Source of the DNA: an uncultured Bacteroidota bacterium
GTDB taxonomy: Bacteria > Bacteroidota > Bacteroidia > Chitinophagales > Chitinophagaceae
DNA length: 32,397 nt
Direction: 5' to 3'
Assembly (NCBI GenBank): GCA_903881585.1
Contig: CAIRTW010000067.1
Coordinates: 1-32,397, forward strand
A program made the translations under genes and the position numbers. Under the pieces are notes generated by a model, which saw only the letters and a program-made list of their open reading frames with translations, was not told where the DNA came from and did no database searches. Below are positions 7,057-32,295 of the stretch, piece by piece; the first letter of the stretch is position 1; each line of letters begins with the position of its first letter.

Positions 7057-7563
7057 ATGTACCGGCAAAAGGTGTTTAATACCGCCATCAGCATGGTGCA
7101 GGACGAAGGTGTTGCTGAAGATATTACCCAGGAAGTTTTTGTGACAATATTCAGGTCTGTACTGTCTTTTAATGAGCAGTCTTCCCTGTCCACCTGGATA
7201 TACCGTATTACTGTAAATAAGTGCCTGGACCACCTCCGCAGCAAAAAAAGGCAGCGGTTCACCCTTTTCGGCCAGCTGTTTCAAAAAAACGGAGAGCCGC
7301 TCAGCGAGCCAAAAACATTTGACCATCCCGGCATAAAACTGGAGCAACGTGAAAATGCACGGTATTTGTTCACGGCTATTGAGGAACTGCCTCACAACCA
7401 GAAAACGATCTTTATACTGGCACATATAGAAGAATTGCCGCAGAAAGAAATAGCCGAGATCATGAATATGTCGTTAAAAGCAGTGGAATCTGTGCTGCAA
7501 AGAGCCAAAGTAAACCTAAGAAAAAAACTATCTGTCTATTACGACCGAAGGAAAACTAATTAA
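7057..7563 (+). CDS. ECF (sigma-70 family, extracytoplasmic function) RNA polymerase sigma factor
   Basis: 168 residues from the first ordinary start codon. Region 2 spans about 5-65, with AEDITQEVFVTIFRS and the -10-binding helix LSTWIYRITVNKCLDHLR. Region 4 spans about 105-160, with LPHNQKTIFILAHIEELPQ and the helix-turn-helix KEIAEIMNMSLKAVESVLQR. The reading frame continues upstream of 7057 with NNFISELRSGADGAYKELVE, which matches the normal ECF N-terminus, so the ATG at 7057 cuts into the first helix of region 2. No ATG, GTG or TTG lies in frame between the stop at 6925-6927 and 7057. The real start may be ATC 6994 or ATT 7006, or an ATG may have been lost by mutation or misread. It is followed after 20 bases by a membrane protein gene and then a Spy/CpxP-like gene, an arrangement that suggests control by these partners. 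Confidence 0.93.
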   Translation: MYRQKVFNTAISMVQDEGVAEDITQEVFVTIFRSVLSFNEQSSLSTWIYRITVNKCLDHLRSKKRQRFTLFGQLFQKNGEPLSEPKTFDHPGIKLEQRENARYLFTAIEELPHNQKTIFILAHIEELPQKEIAEIMNMSLKAVESVLQRAKVNLRKKLSVYYDRRKTN

Positions 7564-7583
7564 ACAGCGTCTAAAAAGTAGTT

Positions 7584-7883
7584 ATGAAAAATAACACGAA
7601 CAAGGAAACCTGGATAAATGAAGCACTGAACAGCACATCGGGCATGCACCGCGCCACACCTCATGCTGATCTCTACGACCGGGTAATGGCTGGTGTCAGC
7701 GGTCCTGAAAAAACAGTAGCTTCCTTGCCCGCAAAACACTGGATCGCGGCCGCGGTACTGTTATTGATATTTAATATCACCGCCATTATTTACGCCATAG
7801 AACAAAACAAAGCCGAGCCAGGCACAGCCATATCCGGCACATTGTTTACAGAGATTCAATCCACAACCACTTATAATTACTAA
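7584..7883 (+). CDS. Small one-TM membrane protein, putative anti-sigma factor
   Basis: 99 residues. The N-terminal part (1-50) is polar and begins MKNNTNKETWINEALNS. A single membrane span lies at about 53-72 (WIAAAVLLLIFNITAIIYAI), and a short tail of about 27 residues would lie in the periplasm. It begins 20 bases after the ECF sigma gene and ends 3 bases before the Spy/CpxP-like gene. Its position and topology fit a membrane-bound anti-sigma factor of the CnrY kind, where a short cytoplasmic segment holds the sigma factor. No zinc-binding anti-sigma motif (HxxxCxxC) is present. The anti-sigma role is inferred from context only. Confidence 0.75.
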   Translation: MKNNTNKETWINEALNSTSGMHRATPHADLYDRVMAGVSGPEKTVASLPAKHWIAAAVLLLIFNITAIIYAIEQNKAEPGTAISGTLFTEIQSTTTYNY

Positions 7884-7886
7884 TCC

Positions 7887-8456
7887 ATGAGCGCGCACAA
7901 CGGATCGAAATTCTGGAAATGGACCGTCGCATTGCTGGTCGTCTGCAACATCGGGCTTTTGCTTACGGTATGGATCATGCCACGAATGCGGCCCGGCCCT
8001 CCTGGTGGAGAAGGGCCACGAAATTTCGTCATCAGCAGCCTTAAATTCACAGACGACCAGGTAAAGAAATACGATGCGCTCATAGATGTCCACAAGCAGA
8101 CAATGGACTCGCTTCGCGATGAATCGATGAGATACCGCCAGCGGCTGTTTGAAAACCTGAGAAATGTGGCCACCGGCGCTGCTGAAGCAGATTCGCTCGC
8201 ACAATGTATTGCCTATGATCAAAAACAAATAGAAATGGTTACCTACAATCATTTCGCACAGGTAAGGGCCATATGTACCGACGCTCAAAAAACTGAGTTT
8301 GATAAAATAATAAGGGAAGTAATAAAAAAAATGAACGGCAAGGGGAGAGGCGGCCCACCTTCACGCGGCCCAGAGAATGGCCCACCCGGCGGGCGAGACG
8401 ATCGCAATCATCCACCACCTCCGCGCGACCGCCCCGGCCCGCCGGAAAATGAGTAA
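7887..8456 (+). CDS. Spy/CpxP/CnrX-like membrane-anchored periplasmic sensor or chaperone
   Basis: 189 residues. A membrane anchor or uncleaved signal lies at about 9-30 (FWKWTVALLVVCNIGLLLTV). A Pro/Gly linker follows (RPGPPGGEGP), then a helical domain (about 45-150) with LKFTDDQVKKYDALIDVHKQ near its start and QKTEFDKIIREVIKKM near its end. This is the antiparallel helical layout of the Spy/CpxP/CnrX/ZraP group, with TDDQ in the place of the LTxxQ motif. The C-terminus (about 152-189) is rich in Pro, Gly and Arg (PPSRGPENGPPGG), likely disordered. In CnrX a periplasmic metal-binding helical domain controls an anti-sigma factor. Here there is no clear His-rich site, so the ligand is unknown. 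It is third in the sigma operon, separated by 3 bases from the gene before it. Confidence 0.8.
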   Translation: MSAHNGSKFWKWTVALLVVCNIGLLLTVWIMPRMRPGPPGGEGPRNFVISSLKFTDDQVKKYDALIDVHKQTMDSLRDESMRYRQRLFENLRNVATGAAEADSLAQCIAYDQKQIEMVTYNHFAQVRAICTDAQKTEFDKIIREVIKKMNGKGRGGPPSRGPENGPPGGRDDRNHPPPPRDRPGPPENE

Positions 8457-8504
8457 TTGATCCGCTCATCTCCTTACCCTCTGCATCTCTCCATACTGAC
8501 TCTT

Positions 8505-8549
8505 GGAGGCCTTAAAAACGCAATACGAGAACGGCGTTTTTGCGCCTCC
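8505..8549. other. Long imperfect hairpin upstream of tmk
   Basis: GGAGGC (8505-8510) pairs with GCCTCC (8544-8549), and AAAAACGC (8514-8521) pairs with GCGTTTTT (8534-8541), with a CTT/GC internal loop and a 12-base terminal loop. It lies 49 bases after the end of the sigma operon and 77 bases before tmk. There is no U tract after the full stem, but the inner arm ends in five T, so it may terminate the sigma operon or structure the tmk leader. Confidence 0.55.
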
Positions 8550-8625
8550 TGCGAGAGATCCCTTCATATCGAGAGAGAACCCCTTTACGGGGAAATACGT
8601 ATTTTCACGCCATTATTAGCTCACA

Positions 8626-9243
8626 ATGAAAAACTTATTCATAGCCCTGGAAGGGATAGATGGCAGCGGAAAAAGTACGCAGGCAAAATTGCTCGCTGAA
8701 AAACTCACCGAAGCTGGCCATAATGTTTATACCACTTTCGAGCCCACGGGTGGTATGATTGGCTCTGTGCTGCGCAACATCCTGAAGGGTACAATAAAGG
8801 CAGATCACCGCACCATAGCCGGCCTCTTCCTCGCCGACCGCCTCGACCACCTGCTGAATGAGGATACCGGCCTTGTAAAAAAAATGAAGGAAGGCTATAC
8901 AGTCATTACAGACCGTTATTACTTTTCGTCCTATGCATATCATGGTGCGCATATGGACATGGACTGGGTGATTGCAGCCAATAAGATGTGCGCCGACATC
9001 CTTAAACCCAGCCTCACTTTGTTTATAGATATTTCGCCCACAACGGCCATGCACCGTATTAATACCAACCGCGCCTCCACTGAGCTTTTCGAAAACAGGA
9101 AAAGCCTCGAAGCCATCCGTGAAAAGTATTTTGAGGCATTCACAAAACTCAAACACGATGAAAGCATCTTCATCACCAACGGCGACCGCCCCGCAGAAAA
9201 CGTAGCAGAAGAGCTTTGGGTAAAAGTGAGCTCAGTATTATAA
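8626..9243 (+). CDS. tmk: Thymidylate kinase (dTMP kinase)
   Basis: 205 residues, the usual length. It transfers phosphate from ATP to dTMP to give dTDP in the cytoplasm, an essential step in dTTP synthesis. The P-loop GIDGSGKST is at residues 10-18, the substrate loop reads FEPTGG (38-43) in place of the common REPGGT, and the DRYYFSSYAYHG motif is at 96-107. LID-region residues follow (NTNRASTELFE). The EPT form occurs in some dTMP kinase groups, so this is a variant and not a defect. The start at 8626 places ALEGIDG at the normal distance from the N-terminus. It is transcribed away from the sigma operon's hairpin and converges with the small lipoprotein gene 56 bases later; no clear terminator was seen between them. 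Confidence 0.96.
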   Translation: MKNLFIALEGIDGSGKSTQAKLLAEKLTEAGHNVYTTFEPTGGMIGSVLRNILKGTIKADHRTIAGLFLADRLDHLLNEDTGLVKKMKEGYTVITDRYYFSSYAYHGAHMDMDWVIAANKMCADILKPSLTLFIDISPTTAMHRINTNRASTELFENRKSLEAIREKYFEAFTKLKHDESIFITNGDRPAENVAEELWVKVSSVL

Positions 9244-9827: not shown

Positions 9828-9852
9828 AAAAGCGCCCACAAAGAGCGCTTTT
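9828..9852 (-). terminator. Rho-independent terminator of the propeller-Ig gene
   Basis: AAAAGCGC (9828-9835) pairs with GCGCTTTT (9845-9852). Read on the minus strand the stem is followed by a run of eight T. It lies 25 bases after the stop at 9877. Its sequence and that of the bases up to the stop closely resemble 14612-14665, after the neighbouring metalloprotease gene. Confidence 0.85.
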
Positions 9853-9876
9853 CTTAAAGATCATGTCAAATAAAAA

Positions 9877-10980
9877 TTACTTATCGATCACCACATGAAA
9901 CACTACCCTGCTCTCACCCGAAGTAACGGTCACCAGGTACATTCCGGAAGGAACTGATTTTTCCAGCTTTATCTGTTCATGCACCTTTCCATTATTCGCC
10001 ACCGCAGTTTTCTTATAGATGGTCTGCCCCAGCATGTTGGTCACGGCTATATTCACATTGTCAGACTGCGACTTTAATGCCCCTTCAATAGTAAAAGAGC
10101 CCGCGTTGGGATTAGGCATCAGGGTAAATGTATTTACACCTCCCACCTCTGAAATACCAGCCGGTATCACCTGCACGGAGCTGCCACCGCTTATTATGCT
10201 GCGTGGGTCGGAGCAAACAAAGCTGCTGGTCTCTTCGCAGTTTACGATCTGTCCCTGCCGCAACGAATCTGTAACATAAACATTGCTGGTAGCGCCCGGA
10301 ACAGGCGTACCATTAATATACCACTGGAACGCGGGCGCAGCGCCTGCGCCCGCGGCCACTGCCGTAAACGTATCTACACTCCCCGCTACAATCGATGACT
10401 GGGAAACACTAACCGACAATGAATTTGAAGTTGGCGTAAATACGTGAACTGTAAATGTATCGCTTATAGCAACGCTGTCTGTGAGGCACGGAACACCATG
10501 GGCCGTCATTGTTAAAACAAGGACATCTCCGTCCAGCGGGGCGTAAATATAGTATGGCCCTGTAGCTACGTTGATGCCGTTTTCGGTCCACAAATAAGTG
10601 GGCGCTGCGCCGCCATATACCGGTACCGCAATAAACTCCACTGTATCTCCTGCACAAGTGCTGTCGCCATGTACCGATGTGATGCTCACCGAAGGCGTCA
10701 GCATGGGGCTGATGGTCATTGTCACGCTGTTTACAGCCGTATCCGGGAATGCACAAATATCATTGCTGGTCAGCACCACTTTTACTACGTCGCCATTCGC
10801 CGGAGTGTAAGAATATGTAACGCCCGCGCCGGTTGCAGTACCATTCACATACCACTGGTAGGCCGGGCCACCGCCCCCATACGTTGGCACTGCAGTAAAT
10901 GTTTCAGGAGAGGTAGTAAGGCAAAGCACGGTGCCAAGGCTTGTTGATATATTAACTGTAGGCACAACGATTGGGCTTGG
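9877..10980 (-). repeat. C-terminal cassette copy 1 (three Ig modules plus type A sorting domain)
   Basis: About 1.1 kb that is alike in 14666-15763 and 18977-20077. Shared marks are TYLWTENG.NVATGPYY, GSVDTF.A.A.GAG.AP.FQW and LGQT.Y, with FHVVIDK at the end. The copies stand at the 3' ends of genes with unrelated N-terminal domains. Confidence 0.8.
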
Positions 10981-13900
10981 GTTCACCGTCACCAGTACGC
11001 CCAATGAAGTACCTGAACAACCTGTTGCATTGGTGATGACCACCGTATAATTGCCGCCTGTGCTGGCAGTGTATGCTGCCGAGGTAGCACCCGCAATATT
11101 TACACCGCCCACCTGCCACTGGTAGGTATAGCCCGCACCGGCAGTAGCGTTAAGCACCACAAATCCACCGGTACAGAAGGTAGTGGTACTTGCGGGGATG
11201 ACACCGGCAGTCAATGCGGCAACAATGTTTACTGTAATAATGGCGCTCGATACACAGCCCGCTGCATTGGTCACCGTATAACTGATATTGTCTGATCCGA
11301 TAGCCATGCCGGTAACCAGTCCGCCTGCGGAAACAGTGGCGATTGCCGGGGTGGCGCTGCTCCATACTCCGCTTGCAGTAATATCAGACAGCGGCGAAGT
11401 CTGCCCTATACAAATTGATATGTTACCCGTAATACCAGCAACTGCTGTGGCGGCATTTACAGTCATATTAAATGTTGCCGCAGCGCTGCCACATATATTC
11501 GACTCCGTATAAGTAATGATAGCAAATCCGGCAGCAACGCCGGTCACATCTCCTGATGCATCAACTGATGCTATGGTAGCATCACTGCTACTCCAGCTGC
11601 CCGCTGCGGTTGCATCAGTTAACGTTGTTATCTGTCCGATGCAAATGTTTGAAGTGCCGCCTACCGGTGTCACAGTGGGCGAACTTAACACTGTAACAAC
11701 TGTAGTAGCTGAAGTAACAACGCAAGCTCCCTGAGTCACAATAACGGCATAGTTGCCGCCAGCGTTGGCCGTATAGCTCGATAGCGTTGCTCCCGGTATG
11801 TTCACTCCGCCCAGCAGCCACTGATACGTGATACCAACACCTGTATTTGCATCCAGCTCCACACTGCCGCCGGGGCAGAATGTTGCAGGGCCAGCCGGAG
11901 TGATTGTAGCGCCCGGACCGGAAGTGATCGATACCGTTGTAATTAATGATGTGGAGCTACATCCACTGTTATATACGATCACCGTATAATTCCCAGCAAG
12001 TGCAGCCGTATAAGATGCCGTAGTAGCTCCTGCGATATTGCCGCCACCCAATTGCCACTGATAGGTATAACCCGCTCCTGTATTTGCATCAAGCACCACA
12101 CTGCCGCCTGTGCAGAACGTAGTCGGCCCTTCCGGAGTAATAGTAGCCCCTGGCGGCGTACCCACCGTAACTGTTGTGATGGCCGATGTGGAATTGCAGC
12201 CCGCTCCTGTTACAATCACTACGTAGTTACCGCCCAAAGTAGCTGTATATGATGAAAGTGTCGCTCCGGCAATATTACCTCCGCCCACTTGCCATTGATA
12301 AGTAAGTCCTGTTCCGGTATTCGCATTCAGCACCACACTGCCACCTGTGCAGAATGTCGTTGGCCCGGCGGGGGTGATGGTTGCTCCGGGCAGTGCGTTC
12401 ACAGTTACTATAGCGGTAACGGCACAGCCGGTGCCCAGCGTATAAGAAATGGTTGATGTACCTGCTGCAACACCGGTTACAATACCGGTACTCGCCACAG
12501 TCGCCACAGAGGTAGTTACACTACTCCAGGCACCGCCGCCGGTAGCATCGCTCAGGTTAGTCGCAGAACCGGCACACGTAGTCAATGTGCCCAAAATAGC
12601 TGTTGGCAGCGGGTTTACAGAAACAACCACCGGCAGCGACGTACTGTCGCAAGTTGCGCTGTTATACACGATCACATTATAAGTGCCGGTAACAGTAGCC
12701 GTATAAGAAGATGTAGTGGCACCGGCTATTACAGCCCCACCGCGCTCCCATTGGTAAGTAAGCCCGGTACCGGTATTTGCATTCAGCACCACCGTAGCTG
12801 GCGAACAGACTGAAGTCGCTCCGGCCGGCGTTATAGTGGCTACAGGCGGCACACAGACTTTTACAAATGCCCACCAGGTATCCCATGTATTCGCAGCAGT
12901 TGCACTGCATTCTTGTATGGTCCAGAAGTCTGTGCTGTTCAACGGGTCCAGTACAGTTCCTGAATAATCGCCCCAGCGGTCGCGTGTACTGCCAAAGTTT
13001 TTGAAGTAGGTATTCTGTCCGTGCCTGTAGGTAAATGCGGGCCGCATAGAATCGACCGCATCCGTATGCATATGCAGCGCATAGGCGGCACATGGATGTA
13101 TTAATTTGGAGGTTACGCTAAAACCGATCAGCGCATCATTACTGGTATTAACCGCAACCGTAGGGAAGGTATAAAAACTATTGTTGGTCGCAGAGGGGTC
13201 ATCTATCAGCCCTATCTGCACAGGAACTCCCAGCGTATCTGTCTGCCACCATTGTGCCGATACACGGGTTGGGTTAGTTGTTGTGCTGTAGGGAAGAAAA
13301 ACAGGATGCGCGAACCACAATTTACCGTTCATCTGTATCACCTGTGTCACGCGGTCATCGTTTGCCTGTATCAGGTTGGCAGTGCCCAGTTGTGGCACAA
13401 AGTCGGCCCCGCCGGTACCTGTCACTGCATTCGATTCTCCCTGCCAGTTGAACCCCGCAGATGCCGGAAAACCAACAGAGGTCATGGTTTCAGAACCAAC
13501 AGCGCCAGATATCTTCCACAATTGCATTTGTCCGCCACCAGTAGCCGTTCCATCCCAGCTCTCTATCATGTACTGATTCTGTTCGGTTACATCGTAAGTA
13601 ATTGCAGGGGCTATCGAAAACGAGTTTGTCTGAACAAAACTGGTATAGGTAGCGCTTGTGCCGGAAAGAAGATTAGCCTTATTGAATGCAAAAACTTTTG
13701 CCCCATTATAACCGCCGCCTGTAACTGGAAACAGGTTGCCCGTTACGGTTACCCACTTCCCGTTAAAGCCTACTTCCGGATAATCAAGCCAGCTCACGCC
13801 AGTTGCATCCACCAGCACTTTGAACATCCACCAGCCTCCAGTAGGGTTGCTGGTCTTCGATACTGCTATGAGTATAGAAGATGTCGCAGACTCAGCACCC

Positions 13901-14463
13901 CAGTCAGTAATAAATATCCAGCGGTTGCTGGTAGCATCATAATGTATTCTCGGATCATAAGAGCCCGCCCCTACTATCGGCGACCAGAACCCATCGAGCG
14001 AGACTGTGGAAACGGTAACGCCGGCCCTTGTCTGAATGCGGACATTGCTGTTTATGGTAGTGATACAATAATTGGAATCCACCGCCCCATGGGTATCCGG
14101 CGGAATAACTGTGCCGGGATCTACGATAGCTTCAAACGTATCTGTTGGTGAAGGAGACACCGGCAAAGAAGGCGGCGCGAAACCATAGTGCGGCACACCA
14201 CCTGGGGGCGTCGGCCGGTAGAATATCAGCGAAGGGTCAGTTGCAGGGCCATGCGACGGACGCTCATTTTCATCCTCGTCATTTTCAGGCTCTTTCACCA
14301 CCGCTGTTTCAGGATGCGCAATGAAGTAATTCATGAGGTCCGTAAAATTCATTTCGCCCCTGGTCTGCTCATGCCCGTGGCCCACAATTACCTGCGCGTA
14401 AACATGCAGATTTGAGCATACCAAAACACCGATCATTAGCGTGTAAAGTCTAATTAGTTTCAT
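9877..14463 (-). CDS. Secreted propeller-like protein with mixed Ig domains and type A T9SS sorting domain
   Basis: 1,528 residues from the ATG at 14463; an in-frame TTG lies two codons earlier. Signal peptide at 1-23 (MKLIRLYTLMIGVLVCSNLH, ending VYA). Residues about 105-540 form a globular domain with repeated short strands and Trp-rich turns (YDATSNRWIFITDWG, GGWWMFKV, RWGDYSGTVLDPLNSTDFW). This looks like a beta propeller seen in other secreted Bacteroidota proteins; no catalytic residues are evident. Then come eight Ig-like modules of two kinds: five of the GATITPAGPTTFC...YQWQ type and three BIG2-like. Three longer Ig modules follow (VSITSVHGDSTCAGD, YLWTENGINVATGPYY). The C-terminus is a type A sorting domain: FTLMPNPNAGSFTIEG, MLGQTIYKK, GMYLVTV, HVVIDK. 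The product is probably exported and then anchored or released. The last 365 residues closely match the two genes upstream of it. Confidence 0.9.
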   Translation of the reverse strand: MKLIRLYTLMIGVLVCSNLHVYAQVIVGHGHEQTRGEMNFTDLMNYFIAHPETAVVKEPENDEDENERPSHGPATDPSLIFYRPTPPGGVPHYGFAPPSLPVSPSPTDTFEAIVDPGTVIPPDTHGAVDSNYCITTINSNVRIQTRAGVTVSTVSLDGFWSPIVGAGSYDPRIHYDATSNRWIFITDWGAESATSSILIAVSKTSNPTGGWWMFKVLVDATGVSWLDYPEVGFNGKWVTVTGNLFPVTGGGYNGAKVFAFNKANLLSGTSATYTSFVQTNSFSIAPAITYDVTEQNQYMIESWDGTATGGGQMQLWKISGAVGSETMTSVGFPASAGFNWQGESNAVTGTGGADFVPQLGTANLIQANDDRVTQVIQMNGKLWFAHPVFLPYSTTTNPTRVSAQWWQTDTLGVPVQIGLIDDPSATNNSFYTFPTVAVNTSNDALIGFSVTSKLIHPCAAYALHMHTDAVDSMRPAFTYRHGQNTYFKNFGSTRDRWGDYSGTVLDPLNSTDFWTIQECSATAANTWDTWWAFVKVCVPPVATITPAGATSVCSPATVVLNANTGTGLTYQWERGGAVIAGATTSSYTATVTGTYNVIVYNSATCDSTSLPVVVSVNPLPTAILGTLTTCAGSATNLSDATGGGAWSSVTTSVATVASTGIVTGVAAGTSTISYTLGTGCAVTAIVTVNALPGATITPAGPTTFCTGGSVVLNANTGTGLTYQWQVGGGNIAGATLSSYTATLGGNYVVIVTGAGCNSTSAITTVTVGTPPGATITPEGPTTFCTGGSVVLDANTGAGYTYQWQLGGGNIAGATTASYTAALAGNYTVIVYNSGCSSTSLITTVSITSGPGATITPAGPATFCPGGSVELDANTGVGITYQWLLGGVNIPGATLSSYTANAGGNYAVIVTQGACVVTSATTVVTVLSSPTVTPVGGTSNICIGQITTLTDATAAGSWSSSDATIASVDASGDVTGVAAGFAIITYTESNICGSAAATFNMTVNAATAVAGITGNISICIGQTSPLSDITASGVWSSATPAIATVSAGGLVTGMAIGSDNISYTVTNAAGCVSSAIITVNIVAALTAGVIPASTTTFCTGGFVVLNATAGAGYTYQWQVGGVNIAGATSAAYTASTGGNYTVVITNATGCSGTSLGVLVTVNPSPIVVPTVNISTSLGTVLCLTTSPETFTAVPTYGGGGPAYQWYVNGTATGAGVTYSYTPANGDVVKVVLTSNDICAFPDTAVNSVTMTISPMLTPSVSITSVHGDSTCAGDTVEFIAVPVYGGAAPTYLWTENGINVATGPYYIYAPLDGDVLVLTMTAHGVPCLTDSVAISDTFTVHVFTPTSNSLSVSVSQSSIVAGSVDTFTAVAAGAGAAPAFQWYINGTPVPGATSNVYVTDSLRQGQIVNCEETSSFVCSDPRSIISGGSSVQVIPAGISEVGGVNTFTLMPNPNAGSFTIEGALKSQSDNVNIAVTNMLGQTIYKKTAVANNGKVHEQIKLEKSVPSGMYLVTVTSGESRVVFHVVIDK

Positions 14464-14482
14464 CCGCAATAATTATTTTTTG

Positions 14483-14514
14483 TAAAGATATGAAAGATTG
14501 GAATCAGGCTACAA
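14483..14514 (-). promoter_or_regulatory. Possible promoter of the propeller-Ig gene
   Basis: On the minus strand TTG (14512-14514) is followed after 21 bases by TATCTTTA (14483-14490), one mismatch from TAnnTTTG. The predicted transcript start lies about 13 bases before the ATG at 14463. The spacing fits Bacteroidota promoters, but the mismatch makes this tentative. Confidence 0.4.
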
Positions 14515-14577
14515 TGAATAATATTTTTTTCGGCTTTAAACCTTACTCAATTTATACGCATATTTATGCGTTTCCCT

Positions 14578-14642
14578 CTATCGGGTTGGCTCCCTATGGC
14601 CAACCTCAATAGGAAAAGCGCCCCACAAGAGAGCGCTTTTCC
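14578..14642 (-). terminator. Double hairpin with terminator after the reprolysin-like gene
   Basis: The first hairpin met by the minus transcript is GGAAAAGCGC (14612-14621) paired with GCGCTTTTCC (14633-14642), 10 bp, 23 bases after the stop at 14666. A second hairpin pairs GGTTGGC (14584-14590) with GCCAACC (14599-14605) and can be extended by CTAT/ATAG. The first is a likely terminator and is closely related to the one at 9828-9852. Confidence 0.8.
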
Positions 14643-14665
14643 CTAAAGACTCATTCGGAATAAGA

Positions 14666-15763
14666 TTACTTATCAATCACTACATGGAACACCACATGCC
14701 CTTCTCCTGCAGTAACACTCACAAGGTATATACCATTTGGCACTATGCTCGAAAGGTTTAGCTGCGCATTCACTTTGCCATTGCTTACGGCAGCCGTTTC
14801 CTTGTAAACGGTTTGCCCAAGCATATCGGTTACTGCTATGTCCACATGTTCGTCTGCTCCTGATCGCAGGGAACCTTTTATGGTAAATGACCCTCCGCTA
14901 GGATTAGGCGATAATGTGAGGCTGTTGATACCATTCCCAACTTGTGCAACACCGGCTGCGGCTACAGATACCGAAATCCCTCCGCTGGTCACTGTATTAG
15001 GCGTGGAGCAAGCAAAGCTGCTTGTCTCTTTACAGCTTACCATTTGTCCGCCCTGCAATGTATCGGTTATGTACATAGGCCCGCTTACACCCGGCACTGC
15101 TATACCGTCAATAAACCACTGGAATGTAGGTGCAGAACCCGCGCCGCTCGCAATAGCTATAAAGGTATCTACAGAGCCCTGCGCTATGCTGGACTGTGTC
15201 ACAAACACAGACAGGTTATTCACTGACGGGCTGAAGACGTGCACAATAAAGATGCTGCTGACAACTACATTAGTTGTTACGCAGGGGTGATTGCTGGTCA
15301 TCGTTAGCACCAGTGTATCACCATCGTGTGGCATATAAGTATAGTAAGGCCCGGTAGCCACATTCGTTCCATTCTCTGTCCAGAGATAGGTGGGCGCTGT
15401 TCCGCCATATACAGGCAACGCCGCAAACTGCGCAGTATCACCGGCACAAGTGGTATCTGCATGAAGTGAAGTGATGCTCACAGACGGCGTAACCGGAGCA
15501 CTCATAGTAACAACAACAGTTGAGCTGGCAGTATCAGGCAATGCACATGAAGCGCTGCTGGTCAGCAATACGCTTACCACGTCGCCGCTGGCCGGTACAT
15601 AAGTGTATGCTGCGCCCGCACCTGCAGTCAAGCCATTCACATACCATTGGTACGTTGGCGATGCCCCGCCATTAACCGGGTTAGCAAAAAAGGTATCTGC
15701 GCCCGAAGTACAAATGGTTATTCCCGGATCAGCCGAAATAGAAACCGATGGAACAACAGTAAA
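14666..15763 (-). repeat. C-terminal cassette copy 2
   Basis: Encodes three Ig modules and a type A sorting domain matching 9877-10980 and 18977-20077. Similarity to copy 1 continues past the stop into the terminator hairpin at 14612-14642. Confidence 0.8.
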
Positions 15764-18700
15764 ACCGGAACCCACTACCACCGTTACATATGCAGAAGTG
15801 GCGCCGCATCCATTCGCATTGGTGATTGTAACACGATAGTTATCCGCGGCGATCGCGGTATATGTCACGCCTGTTGCACCAGTGATATTACCTGCGCCAT
15901 TTTGCCACTGAAAGGTGTACCCTGCCCCGGAAGAGGCGGTAAACAAGGCACTGCCACCCGCACAGATCGTATAAGTACCCGCAGGAGATATAGATGCAAC
16001 CGGCAACGCATTTACAGTAAGTGTAGCAACAGCGCTGCCGCCGCAACCACTGGACACTGAATAGCTGATGATCGTCGTCCCCGCCGTTAGCCCGCTTGCT
16101 AATCCGCCTGCGCCGATAGTTGCAACCGTCGTATTGGAACTGCTCCAGGTACCTGCGGCTGTTACATCGCTGAGCGGAGTTGTAGCGCCCTGGCAAATGT
16201 TTCGCGTACCAGATATTGGGGCAACAACCGCGCCTGTATTAACAGTGACTACGATGGTTGCATTTGTAGTGCCGCAGGTGTTGCTCACCGAATAAGATAT
16301 TAGCGAAGTACCCGCCGTCAAACCTGAAACAAGGCCCGCAGCGCTCACACTTGCCACTGCCGGGCTGCCACTGTTCCAGGTGCCGCCACCGGTTGCATCT
16401 GTCAACGGTGTAGTGCTTCCGGTACAAACCGTGGCTGTGCCTGTGATCGCAGATACCGTTGGCAAAGGATTTACCGTGATCACCTGTGTTACAGTGCCAC
16501 CTGTGGCAACATAGCTAATGACCGAAGTACCTCCGGATACCCCTGTCAATAAACCTGAACCGGAAACAATTGTCGCTACAGCGGTGTTGCTGCTCGACCA
16601 TGTCCCGCCCGAAGAACCGTCTGTAAGGGTTGTGGTTGCGCCCTGGCAAATAGAGAACGCACCATTTATAGGCCCTACTGTAAGCGGATTATTATTTAGC
16701 GTGAAGTTGTTGCTGTTGATATTGAAGAATACATTTCCATTACCCTTCACCTTTATCCGCGCAGTAGTTGATGATGTTGCCGGATTGGGCAGCACCACAC
16801 TCGCCGTGCCGGTATTTGGGAAAGTTCCTACAGTATATGTCCATGTAAATCCGCCATCTGTTGACACATAAATATCCACATTAGCTGCGCTCACCGGAGC
16901 TACGTCTGTACCCACTACGTTCCATGTTATAGTTTGAGTAGAGCCTCCCAGGTAAACAATGCCTGTCGTTCCCTGGCTGGTCACTTTAAAGCCGGCTTTG
17001 GTAGGTGTCTGCACGGCGTTCAGGTGTATCGTATCATCAGGAAAATGGAAACAGCCGTAGCCGGATATAACGCCACGTGCTACATACTTGAAGGTAAGGT
17101 GGCGTGCAGTATCAGGCGCTTTTTCGCCTTCTGCGCCTTCTGTGCCTGCATTGGTCAGGACTCCGGAAAGCACCATGTTTATATTCGGGAAGATGCGGGT
17201 TGTAGTGTAAACGGGATCAAAGCTCCGGAAAATAGGTCCGTTAATATAGGTCTGGTTCAGCCTTTTGCCAAAATCACCCAGGTTCCATTGCAGCCACTGG
17301 TAGGTCTTTGCACTGTCTATCGTTGTTGAATCGACAGAAGTGGGACCAATAAGCTCGAACGGTGTCTTATAAGGGATGGAATAAGACGCTATAAAATGAG
17401 GCAGAGTGTCCACATGGTTTCCGGTGCTTGTAATAACCGCACATGCGTTTTCAGCACCATTGAGTTTGGTCACTATCTGCACAAGACTGGACGCGCTGAA
17501 ATAAGGGTCACTATGGTACTGCAGATCATCAGGATTGCAAATACCTGCATAATCCATAATAGTTCCGCCGCTGCCGGGCTCGTAAGCACAAGATGAAACC
17601 GCATTGCCGGAACAGCTTCCGTCCGCATTGTTGTTAAAGGTGTGATTTGACCCATACTCGTGGCCCATTTCATGCGCTACATAATCTATATCATATCCGT
17701 CGCCGACAGGTGTTGGCGAGCCGGTGCAGCTTTGTGCCTTTGAGCCGGCATTACAAACTACGCCTAAAGACGACACCCCGCCGCCACCTGTGGTAAATAC
17801 GTGGCCAAGGTCAAAATTTGCTGTACCGATAATAGCAGTTGCCGTTGTCTGGTTTTGTGTAAGACAGGCATTACCATTATTATCAATCGTCGCAAACGGA
17901 TCATTACCATTTGTATGCCCTGCACAGCCAAAGATCAGCAGGTCTTCATTTGTACAGAAATTCATCTGTACAGAGAACTCACGGTTATACACTCCGTTAA
18001 TACGGTTCATAGATGTGGTCATCGCGCTGAATGCCTGTGTTATCGTTGGCAGCACAATGCCCGTTGCTGCATTGCAGTAAAAACTATCCGCAGTTAATGC
18101 CAGCCGGTATGTTCTCAGGTTCCAGCCGTTCAACGTACGCGCCGCGCTGCGATGGGCATCGTGGCCGTCTGCATGCAGGTCTTGCGGCAGCAACTGCGTC
18201 TCCACACCGTGCGTCGGTGATACCTGGTCAGGGCTTTGCACTTCACACTTCATGAGCTGGCTGAATGTGCGCACTTCATCCTTTTTGTAATGGGCAAAAT
18301 AATACCCGTCATGAAAGTGGTCGTAAGGATCAATGAACGCGGTTTTATCTGTCTGGAAGATCATCGCATGAAATCCGAAAACGGTAAAGTCGAGCTTCAC
18401 CGTGATGCGCCCGTCGTCAACGGCTTCCCCTGTAAATGTTTTAATGTCGGGATACCTTGCAGCCAACGCATCAGGCATCATGGATGACTGCCATACCCTG
18501 AAGCTCCTGAACGTACCATCGGGCAATGGCAACAGGATGATCGCGCCCTGTTGGGGATCGGACGAAAGGCTCACCATCTGCGCTCGTAATTCTGTTTCAT
18601 CCAATCGGTAACTGACATACGCGCGGGGATGAAATGGCATCAGCGATGCCGATGGCGCTCCTGAGGAAACCTCATGCCAGTAATTAACCGGCTGCCTTGT

Positions 18701-18799
18701 TACTGTTGTTCCCGCAGCCCGCGAACGGCTTTGGGCAACCGCATTTGCTGCATACAGGGCAACAACCGTAATAACTAAAAAGGTAAAGAACTGCTTCAT
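14666..18799 (-). CDS. Reprolysin-like (M12B) zinc metalloprotease with Ig domains and type A T9SS sorting domain
   Basis: 1,377 residues. Signal peptide at 1-22 (MKQFFTFLVITVVALYAANA). A propeptide-like region extends to about 220. The metzincin catalytic domain (about 225-455) has HEMGHEYGSNH at 376-386, giving zinc ligands His376, His380 and His386 with catalytic Glu377, and the Met-turn GTIMDYAG around Met415. It is therefore predicted active as a secreted endopeptidase. A module at about 460-740 (including TQTITWNVVGTDVAPVSAAN and VDIYVSTDGGFTW) is common after this protease type in Bacteroidota. Three BIG2-like modules, one Ig module and the shared C-terminal cassette follow, ending NSLTLSPNPSGGSFTIKG and HVVIDK. 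A weak promoter (TTG 18848-18850, TATTTTG 18825-18831 on the minus strand) lies just upstream. It appears monocistronic, between its own promoter and terminator. Confidence 0.94.
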   Translation of the reverse strand: MKQFFTFLVITVVALYAANAVAQSRSRAAGTTVTRQPVNYWHEVSSGAPSASLMPFHPRAYVSYRLDETELRAQMVSLSSDPQQGAIILLPLPDGTFRSFRVWQSSMMPDALAARYPDIKTFTGEAVDDGRITVKLDFTVFGFHAMIFQTDKTAFIDPYDHFHDGYYFAHYKKDEVRTFSQLMKCEVQSPDQVSPTHGVETQLLPQDLHADGHDAHRSAARTLNGWNLRTYRLALTADSFYCNAATGIVLPTITQAFSAMTTSMNRINGVYNREFSVQMNFCTNEDLLIFGCAGHTNGNDPFATIDNNGNACLTQNQTTATAIIGTANFDLGHVFTTGGGGVSSLGVVCNAGSKAQSCTGSPTPVGDGYDIDYVAHEMGHEYGSNHTFNNNADGSCSGNAVSSCAYEPGSGGTIMDYAGICNPDDLQYHSDPYFSASSLVQIVTKLNGAENACAVITSTGNHVDTLPHFIASYSIPYKTPFELIGPTSVDSTTIDSAKTYQWLQWNLGDFGKRLNQTYINGPIFRSFDPVYTTTRIFPNINMVLSGVLTNAGTEGAEGEKAPDTARHLTFKYVARGVISGYGCFHFPDDTIHLNAVQTPTKAGFKVTSQGTTGIVYLGGSTQTITWNVVGTDVAPVSAANVDIYVSTDGGFTWTYTVGTFPNTGTASVVLPNPATSSTTARIKVKGNGNVFFNINSNNFTLNNNPLTVGPINGAFSICQGATTTLTDGSSGGTWSSSNTAVATIVSGSGLLTGVSGGTSVISYVATGGTVTQVITVNPLPTVSAITGTATVCTGSTTPLTDATGGGTWNSGSPAVASVSAAGLVSGLTAGTSLISYSVSNTCGTTNATIVVTVNTGAVVAPISGTRNICQGATTPLSDVTAAGTWSSSNTTVATIGAGGLASGLTAGTTIISYSVSSGCGGSAVATLTVNALPVASISPAGTYTICAGGSALFTASSGAGYTFQWQNGAGNITGATGVTYTAIAADNYRVTITNANGCGATSAYVTVVVGSGFTVVPSVSISADPGITICTSGADTFFANPVNGGASPTYQWYVNGLTAGAGAAYTYVPASGDVVSVLLTSSASCALPDTASSTVVVTMSAPVTPSVSITSLHADTTCAGDTAQFAALPVYGGTAPTYLWTENGTNVATGPYYTYMPHDGDTLVLTMTSNHPCVTTNVVVSSIFIVHVFSPSVNNLSVFVTQSSIAQGSVDTFIAIASGAGSAPTFQWFIDGIAVPGVSGPMYITDTLQGGQMVSCKETSSFACSTPNTVTSGGISVSVAAAGVAQVGNGINSLTLSPNPSGGSFTIKGSLRSGADEHVDIAVTDMLGQTVYKETAAVSNGKVNAQLNLSSIVPNGIYLVSVTAGEGHVVFHVVIDK

Positions 18800-18916
18800 T
18801 TTTGTTTGTTAGTTATAGTGTGGACAAAATATTACAACTCTAAATTACAAAAAATAAATCCCTGCTTATTGAATGTTTCCATATTTCCCCCTCGGCATAT
18901 GAAATAAGACTGGTAC

Positions 18917-18964
18917 CATTTCATCAGAAAGGCGTTCCTAGTGGAGCGCCTTTCTGATGAAATG
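18917..18964 (-). terminator. 18-bp perfect hairpin after the M4 protease gene
   Basis: The arm 18917-18934 is fully complementary to 18947-18964, with a 12-base loop. It starts 12 bases after the stop at 18977. No U tract follows on the minus strand, so it may act as an RNA 3'-end stabiliser or a weaker terminator instead of a classic one. Confidence 0.7.
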
Positions 18965-18976
18965 CTATTGCTGTTA

Positions 18977-20077
18977 TTATTTATCGATCACCACATGGAA
19001 CACAACGTGTCCGTCTCCTGATGTGATGCTCACAAGGTACATGCCATTTGCGATCGTATTGCCCAGGTTTATCTGCTGGTTGATCTTACCATTGCTGGCT
19101 GCAACGGTCCTTGTATAAACCGTCTGGCCAAGCATATCTGTTATCGCTACAGTTGCATTCTGATCCCCTGCAGATAACAGTGAACCCTTTATCGTGAATG
19201 AACCTGCATTGGGGTTAGGCAGCAAAGTGAAGCTGCTGATGCCACTTACCTGCTGAACACCCGTTGGTGCAACCGAAACCAGGATACCACCGCTGGTCAC
19301 CACATTAGGCTCAGAGCAAACAAAACTGCTCATTTCCCGGCAGTTTACTATTTGCCCATCCCGCAGCGAGTCTGTTATATACATAGGGGACGTTGCACCG
19401 GGAACCGGTGTGCCATTAATGTACCACTGGAATGTTGGCGCTGCACCTGCACCGCTTGCAACAGCGATAAATGTATCTACTGATCCCGACGATATGTTCG
19501 ACTGCGTAACGAATACCGAAAGATCATTCACTGAAGGAGCAAACACATGCACTATAAAGATGTTGCTGACAGCAACATTCGTAGTAAGGCAAGGATAGTT
19601 GCTGGTCATGGTCAGTATCAGTGTATCGCCATCATGCGGCGGATAGATATAGTAAGGCCCTGTAGCTACGTTTATGCCGTTCTCCGTCCACAAGTACGTA
19701 GGGGCTGTGCCTCCAAAAACAGGTACGGCGGCAAACTGCACCGTATCACCGGCACAGGTGCTGTCGCCATGCACTGATGTAATGCTTACCGCCGGTGTCA
19801 TCAGTGGGCTCACCGTGATCACGATACTTGTACTTGCGGTATCCGGTGTTGCACATCCTGCATTGCTGGTCAACAGACAGGTTACAATATCGCCGCCATT
19901 AGGCACATAAGTGTAAGTAGATCCCGCGCCTGCAACAATACCATTTACACTCCATTGGTAAACCGGGGCGCCGCCGCCATTTACCGGGTTGCCTGTAAAT
20001 GTTTCTGATGGCGCCGGCATACAAACCGTATCACCAAGGCTCGATGTAATACTAACGGAAGGAACTACAGCCGTGGT
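18977..20077 (-). repeat. C-terminal cassette copy 3
   Basis: Encodes three Ig modules and a type A sorting domain matching copies at 9877-10980 and 14666-15763. The hairpin after this copy has a different sequence, so the similarity ends near the stop codon. Confidence 0.8.
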
Positions 20078-23000
20078 ACCTACCGTCACGGATACCAAAG
20101 CAGATGAACCGGAGCAACCATTTGCATCGGTAGTCACCACACCGTAATTTTCAGTAGCGCTTGCACTGTAAGTAGCGCCTGTAGCGCCGGTAATATCCGA
20201 GCCACCTGCCTGCCACTGATAGCTGATGCCGGTGGCCGATGTAGCGCCAAGTGATGCGCTTGCCCCAAGGCAAAGTGTAATAGGTCCGGCCGGGCTGATC
20301 GTAACTGTTGGAAGTGCATTTACGGTAACAACAGCTGTAGCGCTTGACGTACAACCTGAAGTGGTCACTGCATAACTTATCGTAGCAGTACCTGCACCTG
20401 TACCTGTCACCGCACCTGTGGCATCAACAGTAGCAACCGCAGGAGCGCCGCTGCTCCACGTGCCCGCAGGCTCGGTATTGGAGAGATCCGTCACGCTGCC
20501 AAGACATACTGATAGAGTGCCTCCAATAGCGGATACTGCTGTAGGGCCTGAAACAGTCACTATTGTAGTAGCATAAGCAGTACCGCATGTATTTGTTGCC
20601 GCATAAGAGATAAGAGCTGTCCCTGCAGATATGCCGGACACAAGGCCAGTAGCATCAACCGTTGCTACCACAGTGTTTCCGCTGCTCCATACGCCGCCGG
20701 TAGTCGCATCTGTAAGTGGCGTTGTCAGCCCGATACATACAACACCAACACCGGTGATCGGCGCAGCTGATACAGAATTAACAGTCACAGCTACAGGCAA
20801 TGAGGTGCTGTCGCAACCCGATGTTTTGTATTCCATAACCGTATAGCTGCCGCCTGCGCTTGCAGTATAGCTGGAAGTTGTGGCGCCTGGTATTGCTACC
20901 CCGCCAAGCTCCCATTGATAGTTGAGCCCGGTAGCGGTATTTGCATTTAATATTACACTGCCCGGTGAGCAGAATGTTGTTGACCCTGCCGGGGTAATAA
21001 CCGAAGGAGGTGGAGTGCATATCGGCCCATCTACAAGGAAGTATCTCGAGAAGCCGGTGAATGTGCCTTTGAAGCCTACATAGTTAGAGCCGGTAAGCAA
21101 TGTTGGTGTTACCTCTATAGAGTTGGCCGGTGTTATCGTAGCATCGGTAGGCTCATCTGTTTTCAGCAGGAATAAAGTACCTGCCGCAACACCATTCAAC
21201 TCCGTATTCGTCAGGTACATGGTAATATCATAAGTAGTTATCGAAGCGCTCAATGATGGCGTCACCGATATTTCCTTCAGCGACCTGTTGATCGAAGAGA
21301 AAACGGCGGGTACAAAACCTACGCCGCCTTGAGTAACTGTAGCATTCGTACACCCGAGATTATAAGTGACGTTATTAAGGCCTGCTATCAGGGATGTATC
21401 CCCGGTGGTAGTATAGAAATATACCTCTTCGCCTGAATTTACAAGCCAGGTTTCTGTACTTCCAGCCACGGTTTCAATATGCGTAGGCGGTACTGTTTGT
21501 TTAAACCGTACCACGGGGCGTGCGGTATTCTGGGTGGCCGCATTGTACCCCAGCGTACAGCCGGTACCAGTTCCTGTATTTGATATATTATTGTCAAATA
21601 CCACTCCGCCTTCCTGTATACCGTCCATCTTATCGTTTCCGGTGAACGCCGCAGCGTTTTGCCCGTAGCATATTTCTACAGCCACATTGCTGACTCCGTC
21701 CCATGCGAAATTGGTCGTAAAATTAATGGAATCCATCCCCAGATTAGTGGTCACATTGCCAGTAAACACTGTGGTTAGGCCGGTCGCAAATGCGGTGCCC
21801 AGGTCGGCAATAGCAGTATTGCCCATGCTGATGGTATAACCAATATACGGAGCCGTAGATGCCTTGGTTGTAATGTTGAAGGCGATCTGCGATAATGGCG
21901 CGCCTTTTCGCACACCCGCAGCGGACAGCTCGCTTGCGTACAGCAGGAACTGCTGATGGGCCCGTCTGTCCAGACCGGTGAATGCAGATGTCAGATTGGA
22001 AGTCACGAGGGTCCCAGCGTTAAGTATAGGATAATTGACACCTCCCAATAAAGGAACACTATCATCATTATCTATATACACCTGCATGGTATCATTTGTA
22101 GGCGATATTGATGCATCGCTGCCTCCTGCACTGAGTGTAAATGCCAGCCTGAAACTCTTGCTGTCGTTAACAGCGCCATTGTCAGCGATGGTCATACTGA
22201 GATACTGAGTGGATGTATCCCCCGGCGCCCACGAAAGTGTTGATACCAGTAGCTGGTAATCAACCCCCACAATGCCGGTACCTCCGGGAGCAATGAGCAC
22301 ATTCACAGTTGGTGTGCCGCCAGTGATCGCCGGGCCAAAAGGCTTCATGCCAATTGAGATCGTCTTAACAGCGGGACATGAGGTAGTTGGTACTTTCTCA
22401 GCAATATGCTGAACTGTGTTTACAAAACCGATCTGTGGGGTGCATGGCACAAAATTAGCGCCTACACCCACGGCATACCACGCGGCCGTAACTGCCTGCA
22501 CCTCATTTGAGCAGGCACCGTAAAGCGTAGTGGCGGCGGCAATGGATGTTGTTCGCAATACGGGGTAAGTAGCATTATCGGCAAGTATCAGTTCTGTCTG
22601 ATAAAGGATATTCTGCGAAATTGTAAAATCCTGGCCCGCTACGGTATAGCTGTTGCCAAGGTCATTTGTTCCGGATCCGCCCTCGGTCAGTAAGTAGTAC
22701 CATTTACTGATAACACCCATATTCGTATGCACGCCACATTGATCATTCCCACCGCCTGGCGTACAGGTAGTTACACTATACCAGTTGGTGCCAAGGTATG
22801 TATCTGGCAGCCCGAACAGCTTCGGATAATCCAGCCTGCGCAGCGGCGTGCCGCAGCCTATCTCTTCGCCCATCCACCATGTTTGTTTTGGCACAGCATC
22901 CACTTCGTGCGGGTTGCCCCAGTTTTCTATCGTAGCGCCCCAGCAGTCACTGAGCCCTTCGTCTATACCTCCCGACTCCTTCGAATAGATGAGGTTACAC

Positions 23001-24178: not shown

Positions 24179-24222
24179 ATACTCAGTATTTTTATGGTTG
24201 GAAATAATAACTCGTAATTTAA

Positions 24223-24230
24223 CAAAGCTA
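24223..24230 (-). promoter_or_regulatory. -7 box (TAGCTTTG) of the M4 protease gene
   Basis: An exact match to TAnnTTTG on the minus strand, 44 bases before the ATG at 24178. A small hairpin (CACCC 24241-24245, GGGTG 24252-24256) sits directly upstream where the -33 element would lie. No TTG at standard spacing was found. Confidence 0.55.
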
Positions 24231-24329
24231 TGTAAAAAATCACCCAATGAGGGGTGAAAGCCAGTTATTTAGTGGCGAATAACCCTTCAAATAAAAAACA
24301 ACGACAATGTGTGTCCGAGGCCATCTATT

Positions 24330-26321: not shown

Positions 26322-26340
26322 GTAACGAAAAATAACACCG

Positions 26341-26745
26341 ATGAAAAAACAATACCCGGCCCTTTTATTCATAGCTGTCTGCGCTGCATTTATGCAATGT
26401 AAGAGCAGCAGCAAGATCACTTACAACATCCCCACTACCCTGTCAAAAACACAACACGATGAGCTGCTGGACAAATGCAAGAAGGGCAAAGAACTCTTTA
26501 AGGCAAATTGCTCCGGCTGCCATGGCATTTTCACCGCAGGGAAGGATGGCATACCCAATTTCACTGCTACGCAAATAGATAATTACTCTGCCCGCTTCCT
26601 AAGGCACGATCCAAAAAACCATGCGGTAACCAAAGAAATGAGCCCCGACCAGATGAATGATGTGCTCATGTTCCTGCGCTTCCGGAATGTGAAAAAGGCA
26701 GATAATACAGCGGAAAAAAAAGCTAACCCTCCCCTGCATCAGTAA
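26341..26745 (+). CDS. Cytochrome c lipoprotein, probable electron partner of the peroxidase
   Basis: 134 residues. The signal MKKQYPALLFIAVCAAFMQC ends in a lipobox with Cys20, so the protein is likely lipid-anchored. The single heme site is CSGCH at 57-61, in the context KGKELFKANCSGCHGIF. Met100 (KEMSPDQM) is a likely second heme ligand. The tail is polar. It starts 19 bases after the peroxidase gene and is probably co-transcribed. Electron donation to that enzyme is inferred from this pairing. Confidence 0.9.
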   Translation: MKKQYPALLFIAVCAAFMQCKSSSKITYNIPTTLSKTQHDELLDKCKKGKELFKANCSGCHGIFTAGKDGIPNFTATQIDNYSARFLRHDPKNHAVTKEMSPDQMNDVLMFLRFRNVKKADNTAEKKANPPLHQ

Positions 26746-32189: not shown

Positions 32190-32295
32190 AAGCAGTTTGA
32201 GGAAAGTCAACTAAATTCTAAGGCACTATATTAAATTCAATGGCGGAAATAAAAGCGCGCGACCCGGTACTGGCATAGGTAATACCAATTAGACA

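What the first reader, a model, noticed from the sequence alone, without database searches (positions are those of the whole stretch)
9828..20077. Same C-terminal secretion cassette fused to three unrelated N-terminal domains
The last 365 or so residues (three Ig modules plus type A sorting domain) of the propeller-like protein, the M12B protease and the M4 protease are close copies, while their N-terminal parts are unrelated. This points to spread of a 1.1-kb module by duplication or gene conversion, giving different catalytic heads the same export and anchoring tail.
Basis: partly seen in the sequence, partly recalled or inferred. Interest (0 to 1): 0.6.

Follow-up and report, generated by a model that had tools for sequence, protein, structure and literature searches.

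The report
Shared stalk domains overwritten between genes
Several unrelated secreted proteins of a Bacteroidota bacterium end in the same four-domain tail, and in its relatives two of those four domains have been copied from gene to gene, so that within one genome they stay more alike than in the matching genes of distant relatives.

Summary
The 366-residue tails of A (9877-14469), B (14666-18799) and C (18977-24247) are 61-69% identical in protein and 62-69% in DNA, with saturated synonymous sites: old relatives, not close copies. Heads B (M12B) and C (M4) are confirmed; the 'propeller' of A is not. A fourth close member (Kelch head) and nine distant ones lie elsewhere in the genome.

Tails of 28 genomes show concerted evolution. 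Between distant lineages a tail is no closer to the tail of its own head's orthologue (45.7%) than to other tails (45.2%), while different heads in one genome share 60.5%. One clade per head is rejected for A and C tails. At close range tails mostly follow their own orthologue.

The unit exchanged most recently is mainly the Ig2-Ig3 doublet, about 540 bp, up to the linker before the sorting domain. In three neighbouring gene pairs, one from the named strain F. stenotrophus RB1R16, all or most of it is 81-96% identical in DNA while the rest of the tail is 58-63%. So the 1.1-kb 'secretion cassette' is not the usual unit; 19 of 26 refined tracts spare the sorting domain. The selective reason is unknown.

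The parts
9877..14469 (-). Gene A, 1530 aa: unclassified head (orthologues in nine other fetched genomes), Ig-like/Big_2 array, shared tail
   Evidence: ORF; Pfam/NCBIfam; head without Pfam match and without meaningful PDB match; head orthologues
10699..10968 (-). A tail, Ig1
   Evidence: AlphaFold of the homologous C tail
10159..10698 (-). A tail, Ig2-Ig3 doublet (main unit of exchange)
9877..10158 (-). A tail, type A sorting domain with stop codon
   Evidence: TIGR04183 36.8 bits, cut-off 23
14666..18799 (-). Gene B, 1377 aa: reprolysin-like M12B protease (HEMGHEYGSNH zinc motif), Ig-like array, shared tail
   Evidence: PF13688 1.2e-22; motif
15491..15757 (-). B tail, Ig1
14954..15490 (-). 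B tail, Ig2-Ig3 doublet
14666..14953 (-). B tail, type A sorting domain with stop codon
   Evidence: TIGR04183 34.9 bits
18977..24247 (-). Gene C, 1756 aa by the longest ORF (TTG start; by eye the true start is an ATG downstream): FTP propeptide, M4 thermolysin-like protease (HEIGH), Ig-like array, shared tail
   Evidence: PF01447/PF02868/PF07504; motif
19799..20068 (-). C tail, Ig1
19262..19798 (-). C tail, Ig2-Ig3 doublet
18977..19261 (-). C tail, type A sorting domain with stop codon
   Evidence: TIGR04183 38.8 bits
26778..32210 (-). Gene D, 1810 aa: Big_2 array, no catalytic head found, diverged copy of the same tail (32-35% aa)

Best explanation
The three genes encode T9SS cargo proteins: a signal peptide (by eye), a head (two metalloproteases and one unclassified), an array of Ig-like repeats, and a tail of Ig1-Ig2-Ig3 plus a type A sorting domain. 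The tail belongs to a genus-wide family that evolves in concert. Gene conversion within a genome overwrites tail DNA from one cargo gene to another, so that at depth tails follow the species while heads follow their own family. Older events, in the ancestors of species groups, homogenised the whole tail. Recent events mostly cover only Ig2-Ig3, from about the Ig1/Ig2 junction to the linker before the sorting domain, often between neighbouring genes. In the window the tails are products of such an old event and have since diverged. Shown: tail phylogeny, segment pattern, recent tracts with shared synonymous sites. Inferred: that the mechanism is ordinary homologous gene conversion, and that the proteins are exported and their sorting domain cut off by PorU, leaving Ig2-Ig3 as the C-terminal stalk of the mature protein.
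For: Tail tree clusters at depth by lineage, not by head. One clade of A tails rejected (dlnL 742, p-AU 6e-59) and of C tails (dlnL 559, p-AU 7e-85). Identity, 51 tails: same genome/other head 0.605 (n=30), other lineage/same head 0.457 (n=247), other lineage/other head 0.452 (n=753); heads of orthologues across lineages 0.598. gyrA recovers the species of the two largest lineages as clades (87/97 and 100/100; 7 of 8 and 8 of 9 members sampled). Cross-lineage quartet, DNA: G000/G006 B-C 29 orthologous, 118 paralogous, 29 control sites. Segments, same genome/other head vs other lineage/same head: Ig1 .563/.492, Ig2 .698/.468, Ig3 .664/.458, CTD .501/.412, upstream 45 residues .46/.43. Recent tracts with pS before|inside|after: Jr151 codons 89-276 .79|.16|.79; AM2607 84-250 .63|.32|.82; F. 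stenotrophus 89-276 .66|.56|.72, weaker. AM2607 mosaic: Ig1 of each gene is closest to its own orthologues, cores 89% identical to each other. Core segment tree needs 7 lineage changes, the least possible for eight lineages. SprA, PorV and a C25 peptidase 1.3 kb from PorV are present.
Against: Inside the window no recent tract is seen; synonymous sites are saturated, and inside the window's species group orthologous sites outnumber paralogous ones overall, also in the core (505 vs 372). Some events do not fit the Ig2-Ig3 unit: G019 L101/L304 covers codons 3-216, a G008 trio is alike over the whole tail, some G010/G024 pairs are alike only in the sorting domain, and 7 of 26 refined tracts reach beyond codon 282. 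In most of the 815 within-genome pairs the core is less conserved than its flanks; it exceeds their mean by over 0.1 in 13 pairs, and the reverse holds in 51; over 0.15 in 5 against 7. Lineages were defined after seeing the tail tree, and six of the eight have no gyrA support. 87 of 409 scanned pairs beat every null simulation, so the null is lenient. The C heads show a discordance of their own (window species group not one clade, p-AU 0.012). B and Kelch tails were not AU-tested.
Confidence: 0.82

Rival explanations
1. Old duplication only: the tail was fused once to each head before the genus arose and has been inherited vertically since.
For: Among close species A and C tails, and less firmly B tails, group with their own orthologues (A 100/98, two C pairs 100/99 and 99/97, B 94/85); synonymous sites in the window are saturated.
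Against: One clade of A or of C tails is rejected; across lineages same-head tails are no closer than other-head tails; recent tracts exist.
Confidence: 0.05
2. The whole 1.1-kb tail including the sorting signal is the mobile unit.
For: Ig1 and sorting-domain trees also need fewer changes of lineage than of head (10 vs 15 and 8 vs 15); a G008 trio is alike over the whole tail.
Against: 19 of 26 refined tracts end at or before codon 282; inside the window's species group paralogous sites exceed control sites clearly only in the core (Ig1 129/115, core 372/167, sorting domain 121/136).
Confidence: 0.12
3. No DNA exchange: tails in one cell are kept alike by selection, through co-evolution with a lineage-specific surface partner.
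For: Could explain why old pairs are alike in protein with saturated synonymous sites.
Against: Synonymous similarity confined to tracts (pS 0.16 and 0.32 inside against 0.63-0.82 outside in Jr151 and AM2607) needs DNA copying.
Confidence: 0.07
4. Artefact of metagenome assembly: related tails collapsed or joined.
For: Many of the genomes are labelled MAGs; the window's own genome has 5.23% contamination.
Against: Tracts are 81-96% identical, not 100%; one is from Flavipsychrobacter stenotrophus strain RB1R16, a record not labelled MAG (L098); the cross-lineage pattern is seen over 28 genomes.
Confidence: 0.03

Closest known systems
Gingipain/HagA adhesin modules of Porphyromonas gingivalis (PMC5266723, passages seen)
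   Same: T9SS cargo genes with different heads (rgpA, kgp, hagA) hold identical repeat sequence within and between them and show combinatorial modularity of the modules before the sorting domain
   Different: There the modules are cleaved-adhesin and DUF2436 domains in a few genes of P. gingivalis and P. gulae; here they are Ig-like modules behind at least four head families across a genus, with tracts covering one doublet, tested by trees across species
Recurrent concerted evolution of prokaryotic genes (PMC6053082, abstract and section list seen)
   Same: Paralogues in one genome more alike than orthologues, recurring in lineage after lineage
   Different: That survey reports 26 genes (by its abstract); here one segment of otherwise unrelated multidomain proteins is homogenised
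Helicobacter pylori bab paralogues (search listings only)
   Same: Gene conversion among surface-protein paralogues (recalled; the listings only show the terms together)
   Different: There the paralogues are one family (recalled); here the heads are unrelated
T9SS type A sorting domain (TIGR04183; PMC12618676 and PMC11285876, passages seen)
   Same: The last ~90 residues match the type A domain models
   Different: The exchanged doublet lies upstream of it; PorU-processed P. gingivalis cargo has 67-88 residues after the cut, so a tract ending about 90 residues from the end stops at or just before the expected cut

Membership tests
T9SS type A cargo | C-terminal TIGR04183/PF18962 domain | tested here: met
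   A, B, C and D above cut-off
T9SS type A cargo | T9SS encoded by the same genome | tested here: met
   SprA 2459 bits, PorV family 372 bits, a C25 peptidase 1.3 kb from PorV; other components not searched
T9SS type A cargo | Export through T9SS and removal of the sorting domain by PorU | not testable with these tools
   needs culture and proteomics
T9SS type A cargo | Sec signal peptide | not tested
   hydrophobic N-termini read by eye only
Concerted evolution by gene conversion | Paralogues in one genome more alike than orthologues of other lineages | tested here: met
   0.605 vs 0.457; AU tests for A and C; not met among close species
Concerted evolution by gene conversion | Sharp tracts with shared synonymous sites between diverged flanks | tested here: met
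   Jr151 and AM2607 clearly, F. stenotrophus weakly; not met in the window itself
Gingipain/HagA-type adhesin module sharing | Cleaved-adhesin or DUF2436 modules | tested here: not met
   neither family among the Pfam hits of A-D at E<=0.01
M12B (reprolysin) protease, head B | Family match and HExxHxxGxxH motif | tested here: met
M4 (thermolysin) protease, head C | Both catalytic-domain models and HExxH | tested here: met
Beta-propeller, head A | Propeller fold | tested here: inconclusive
   AlphaFold pLDDT 42.5 from 7 sequences; no meaningful sequence match

The most novel reading that the evidence does not exclude
Ig2-Ig3 is the part of each cargo that remains nearest the cell after the sorting domain is cut off, and it acts as a common stalk through which different secreted proteins of one cell contact each other or a shared surface partner. 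Gene conversion keeps this interface matched within a cell and lets it drift between species, like a strain-specific coupling, while the universal sorting signal need not be matched.
Probability: 0.2. Interest if true: 0.72.

Novelty: new variant of a known kind. Interest (0 to 1): 0.55.

Why it matters
Here the part most recently exchanged is mostly not the signal but the two domains before it. If general, tail similarity in Bacteroidota cannot be used to infer relations between cargo proteins, and the doublet becomes a testable candidate for a common function on the cell surface. It is also a case in which a segment inside unrelated multidomain bacterial proteins, rather than a whole gene, evolves in concert across a genus.

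Tried and rejected
Recent duplication in the window: rejected by saturated synonymous sites. Purely vertical tails: rejected across lineages for A and C. Propeller fold of head A: AlphaFold failed, so no fold search was made with it. PDB look-up of the tail by sequence gave one weak match, titin, E 0.017; Foldseek gave Ig arrays, best the Aureispira grappling-hook protein (E 8.5e-13, TM 0.33), which supports Ig-like folds but not homology. A search for conversion in the window's own B-C pair is suggestive only: core sites G000/G015 15 orthologous, 25 paralogous, 12 control; longest paralogous run p=0.016, uncorrected for 19 quartets.

Literature: eight searches, three of them with lists cut short, listed no paper on concerted evolution of T9SS cargo tails; the nearest is the gingipain paper. 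Most subscription journals and preprints are not held, and PMC7323717 only cites a concerted-evolution paper in its references.

Rows dropped: the tail tree used 60 of 98 selected ORFs, those whose locus I had assigned to a genome; the identity table used 51 of the 60, leaving out eight unclassified heads and one Vps10 head; 204 of 258 tails were kept after removing duplicates. Only four genomes (G000, G020, G015, G006) had their matches listed in full; the others come from the best-scoring part of a cut list, so the 815 pairs are not a random sample. Tract scan: 409 of 815 pairs passed the filters and gave an interval, the 26 best were refined. The upstream profile was anchored without gaps and understates identity; one search aligned it.
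Full report
WHAT IS THERE. The window is the whole of contig C67 of a 4.85-Mb draft genome; named records with related tails are labelled Chitinophagaceae, Flavipsychrobacter, Taibaiella, Sphingobacteriales or plain Bacteroidetes, among others. On the minus strand lie A (9877-14469), B (14666-18799), C (18977-24247) and, beyond two plus-strand cytochrome genes, D (26778-32210). B carries an M12B protease with a full HExxHxxGxxH motif; C carries an M4 protease with HEIGH. A's head has no Pfam relative, no meaningful PDB match and no usable model. All four end in a type A sorting domain above cut-off. An AlphaFold model of C's tail (35 sequences, pLDDT 87.6, pTM 0.55) shows strands at 7-90, 96-179 and 185-261, read here as three Ig-like modules, a weakly predicted linker (271-280) and the sorting domain (282-364).

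HOW ALIKE. The tails of A, B and C are 61-69% identical in protein and 62-69% in DNA; pS is 0.68-0.73 and the longest identical run is 17 nt. At residues identical in both, the same codon is used in 43-45% of cases against 34% expected from codon usage; pairs with D, whose tail is 32-35% identical, give 39-45%, so this excess is no sign of recent copying.

HOW WIDE. The own genome holds 63 matches to the tail profile at E<=1e-5; the fourteen at E<=2e-64 cover nearly the whole tail: A, B, C, D, the Kelch-headed gene on C337 and nine others. All 24 same-genus genomes searched match (weakest best E 2e-82); of 15 genomes of other families in the order 8 match at E<=1e-10 (best 7e-43). A member in the relative G020 has a Vps10 head (L149).

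CONCERTED EVOLUTION. A tree of 60 tails shows two levels. Among close species A tails group with their own orthologues (100/98); C tails form two pairs (100/99 and 99/97); B tails group with weaker support (94/85). Deeper, tails cluster by species lineage whatever the head: 20 tails with A, B, C, Kelch and Vps10 heads from the window's species group form one clade (100/100). Holding A tails together costs 742 log-likelihood units and C tails 559; B and Kelch tails were not tested so. gyrA, an independent marker, recovers the species of the two largest lineages as clades (87/97 and 100/100). For the other six lineages gyrA is unresolved or lacks members, so they rest on the tail tree itself. 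Among 51 tails of 28 genomes, same genome/other head averages 0.605 (n=30), other lineage/same head 0.457 (n=247) and other lineage/other head 0.452 (n=753), while heads of orthologues across lineages average 0.598. Pairs are not independent. Head trees are broadly vertical, with exceptions: C heads of the window's species group are not one clade (p-AU 0.012), and for A heads it is borderline (p 0.054), where AM2607 stands apart.

WHICH PART MOVES. By segment, same genome/other head against other lineage/same head is Ig1 .563/.492, Ig2 .698/.468, Ig3 .664/.458, sorting domain .501/.412, and the 45 residues upstream .46/.43. In segment trees the core needs 7 changes of lineage, the least possible for eight lineages; Ig1 needs 10 and the sorting domain 8, against 19 (core), 15 and 15 changes of head. 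So lineage signal exists in the whole tail and is strongest in Ig2-Ig3. Inside the window's species group, summed quartet sites (orthologous/paralogous/control) are Ig1 446/129/115, core 505/372/167, sorting domain 400/121/136: only the core has a clear excess of paralogous over control sites. Three of the 17 quartets involve AM2607 and give 127 of the 372; without them the core is still 482/245/150. Quartets share sequences, so this is descriptive.

RECENT TRACTS. I collected 204 near-full tails from 38 genomes, giving 815 within-genome pairs. A scan for an elevated stretch, allowing for column conservation, gave an interval in 409 pairs that passed the filters; the highest of 120 null simulations scored 9.1 and 87 pairs exceed it, so the score alone is lenient and the strongest cases matter. 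Refined tracts: Jr151 codons 89-276, DNA identity 0.96 inside and 0.58 outside, pS .79|.16|.79; AM2607 84-250, 0.89 and 0.59, pS .63|.32|.82; F. stenotrophus RB1R16 89-276, 0.81 and 0.63, pS .66|.56|.72. Older-looking ones, with pS of 0.63-0.72 inside: G019 C-Kelch 81-277, G012 C-B 94-270, G015 A-B 88-269, window C-Kelch 76-277. Of the 26 refined tracts, 11 end at codons 266-282 and 8 begin at 84-97, near the two junctions; 19 end at or before 282. The first three pairs and the G019 C-Kelch pair are neighbouring genes. In AM2607, Ig1 of each gene is closest to its own orthologues while the two cores are 89% identical in protein: a mosaic.

RESULTS AGAINST. Not all tracts fit: G019 L101/L304 spans 3-216, G008 has three tails alike throughout, some G010/G024 pairs are alike only in the sorting domain, and two G007 pairs share only codons 142-183 or 151-183. 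Over all 815 pairs the core is on average less conserved than its flanks (.527|.508.481|.526); it exceeds their mean by more than 0.1 in 13 pairs and falls short by that much in 51, by more than 0.15 in 5 and 7. The core leads only among close pairs: in 39 of 60 pairs with overall DNA identity of 0.6 or more, but in 136 of 755 below that. For 16 tails of the own genome the nearest tail is in another species of the group for 15 and in the same genome for one, B; in G011 it is in the same genome for 11 of 16, but no close relative of G011 was sampled. Conversion is therefore occasional, and in the window old.

HOW IT PROBABLY WORKS. The genome encodes SprA, PorV and a C25 peptidase near PorV, so export by T9SS is expected. 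By the literature, type A domains are carried by the PorV shuttle (PMC12618676, passages), and PorU-processed cargo of P. gingivalis has 67-88 residues after the cut (PMC11285876, passages). Tracts ending at codon 276 of 366 stop about 90 residues from the end, at or just before such a cut. If the same holds here, the exchanged doublet is the C-terminal end of the mature protein. Whether matching it within a cell is selected, or conversion is merely tolerated there, the data do not decide.

KNOWN OR NEW. Shared modules among T9SS cargo genes, in varying combinations, are known from gingipains and HagA (PMC5266723, passages), and recurrent concerted evolution of prokaryotic genes from PMC6053082 (abstract). 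Eight literature searches listed nothing on concerted evolution of T9SS tails. I file it as a new variant of a known kind.

Noticed in passing
window 1196-6703 (-): 1835-aa protein with a Big_2 repeat array and a type B sorting domain (TIGR04131/CHU_C), so type A and type B cargo genes lie near each other.
   Followed up: no
window 24402-26745 (+): Di-haem cytochrome c peroxidase (MauG type) followed by a small cytochrome c gene, between the secreted genes C and D.
   Followed up: no
window 7057-9243 (+): Sigma-70 family factor of 168 aa, an LTXXQ/heavy-metal-resistance-like protein and thymidylate kinase.
   Followed up: no
window 28937-31477: Ten copies of a 207-nt repeat, mostly 231-237 nt apart, in gene D; the nine others are 63-70% identical to the reference copy, in the Big_2-like array.
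   Followed up: no
L066:9506-13675 (AM2607 gene A): A head only about 57% identical to the window's, grouping with a distant lineage (96/97), while its Ig1 and core resemble the window's species group; perhaps an incoming head or a hidden paralogue.
   Followed up: partly
L067 and L137 (gene C of G012 and G015): M4 heads do not group with those of G000/G020/AM2607 (p-AU 0.012) although their tails do; possible old exchange of heads.
   Followed up: partly
L350, L361, L355 (G008): Three tails on different contigs, 81-96% identical in every segment: recent whole-tail copies.
   Followed up: no
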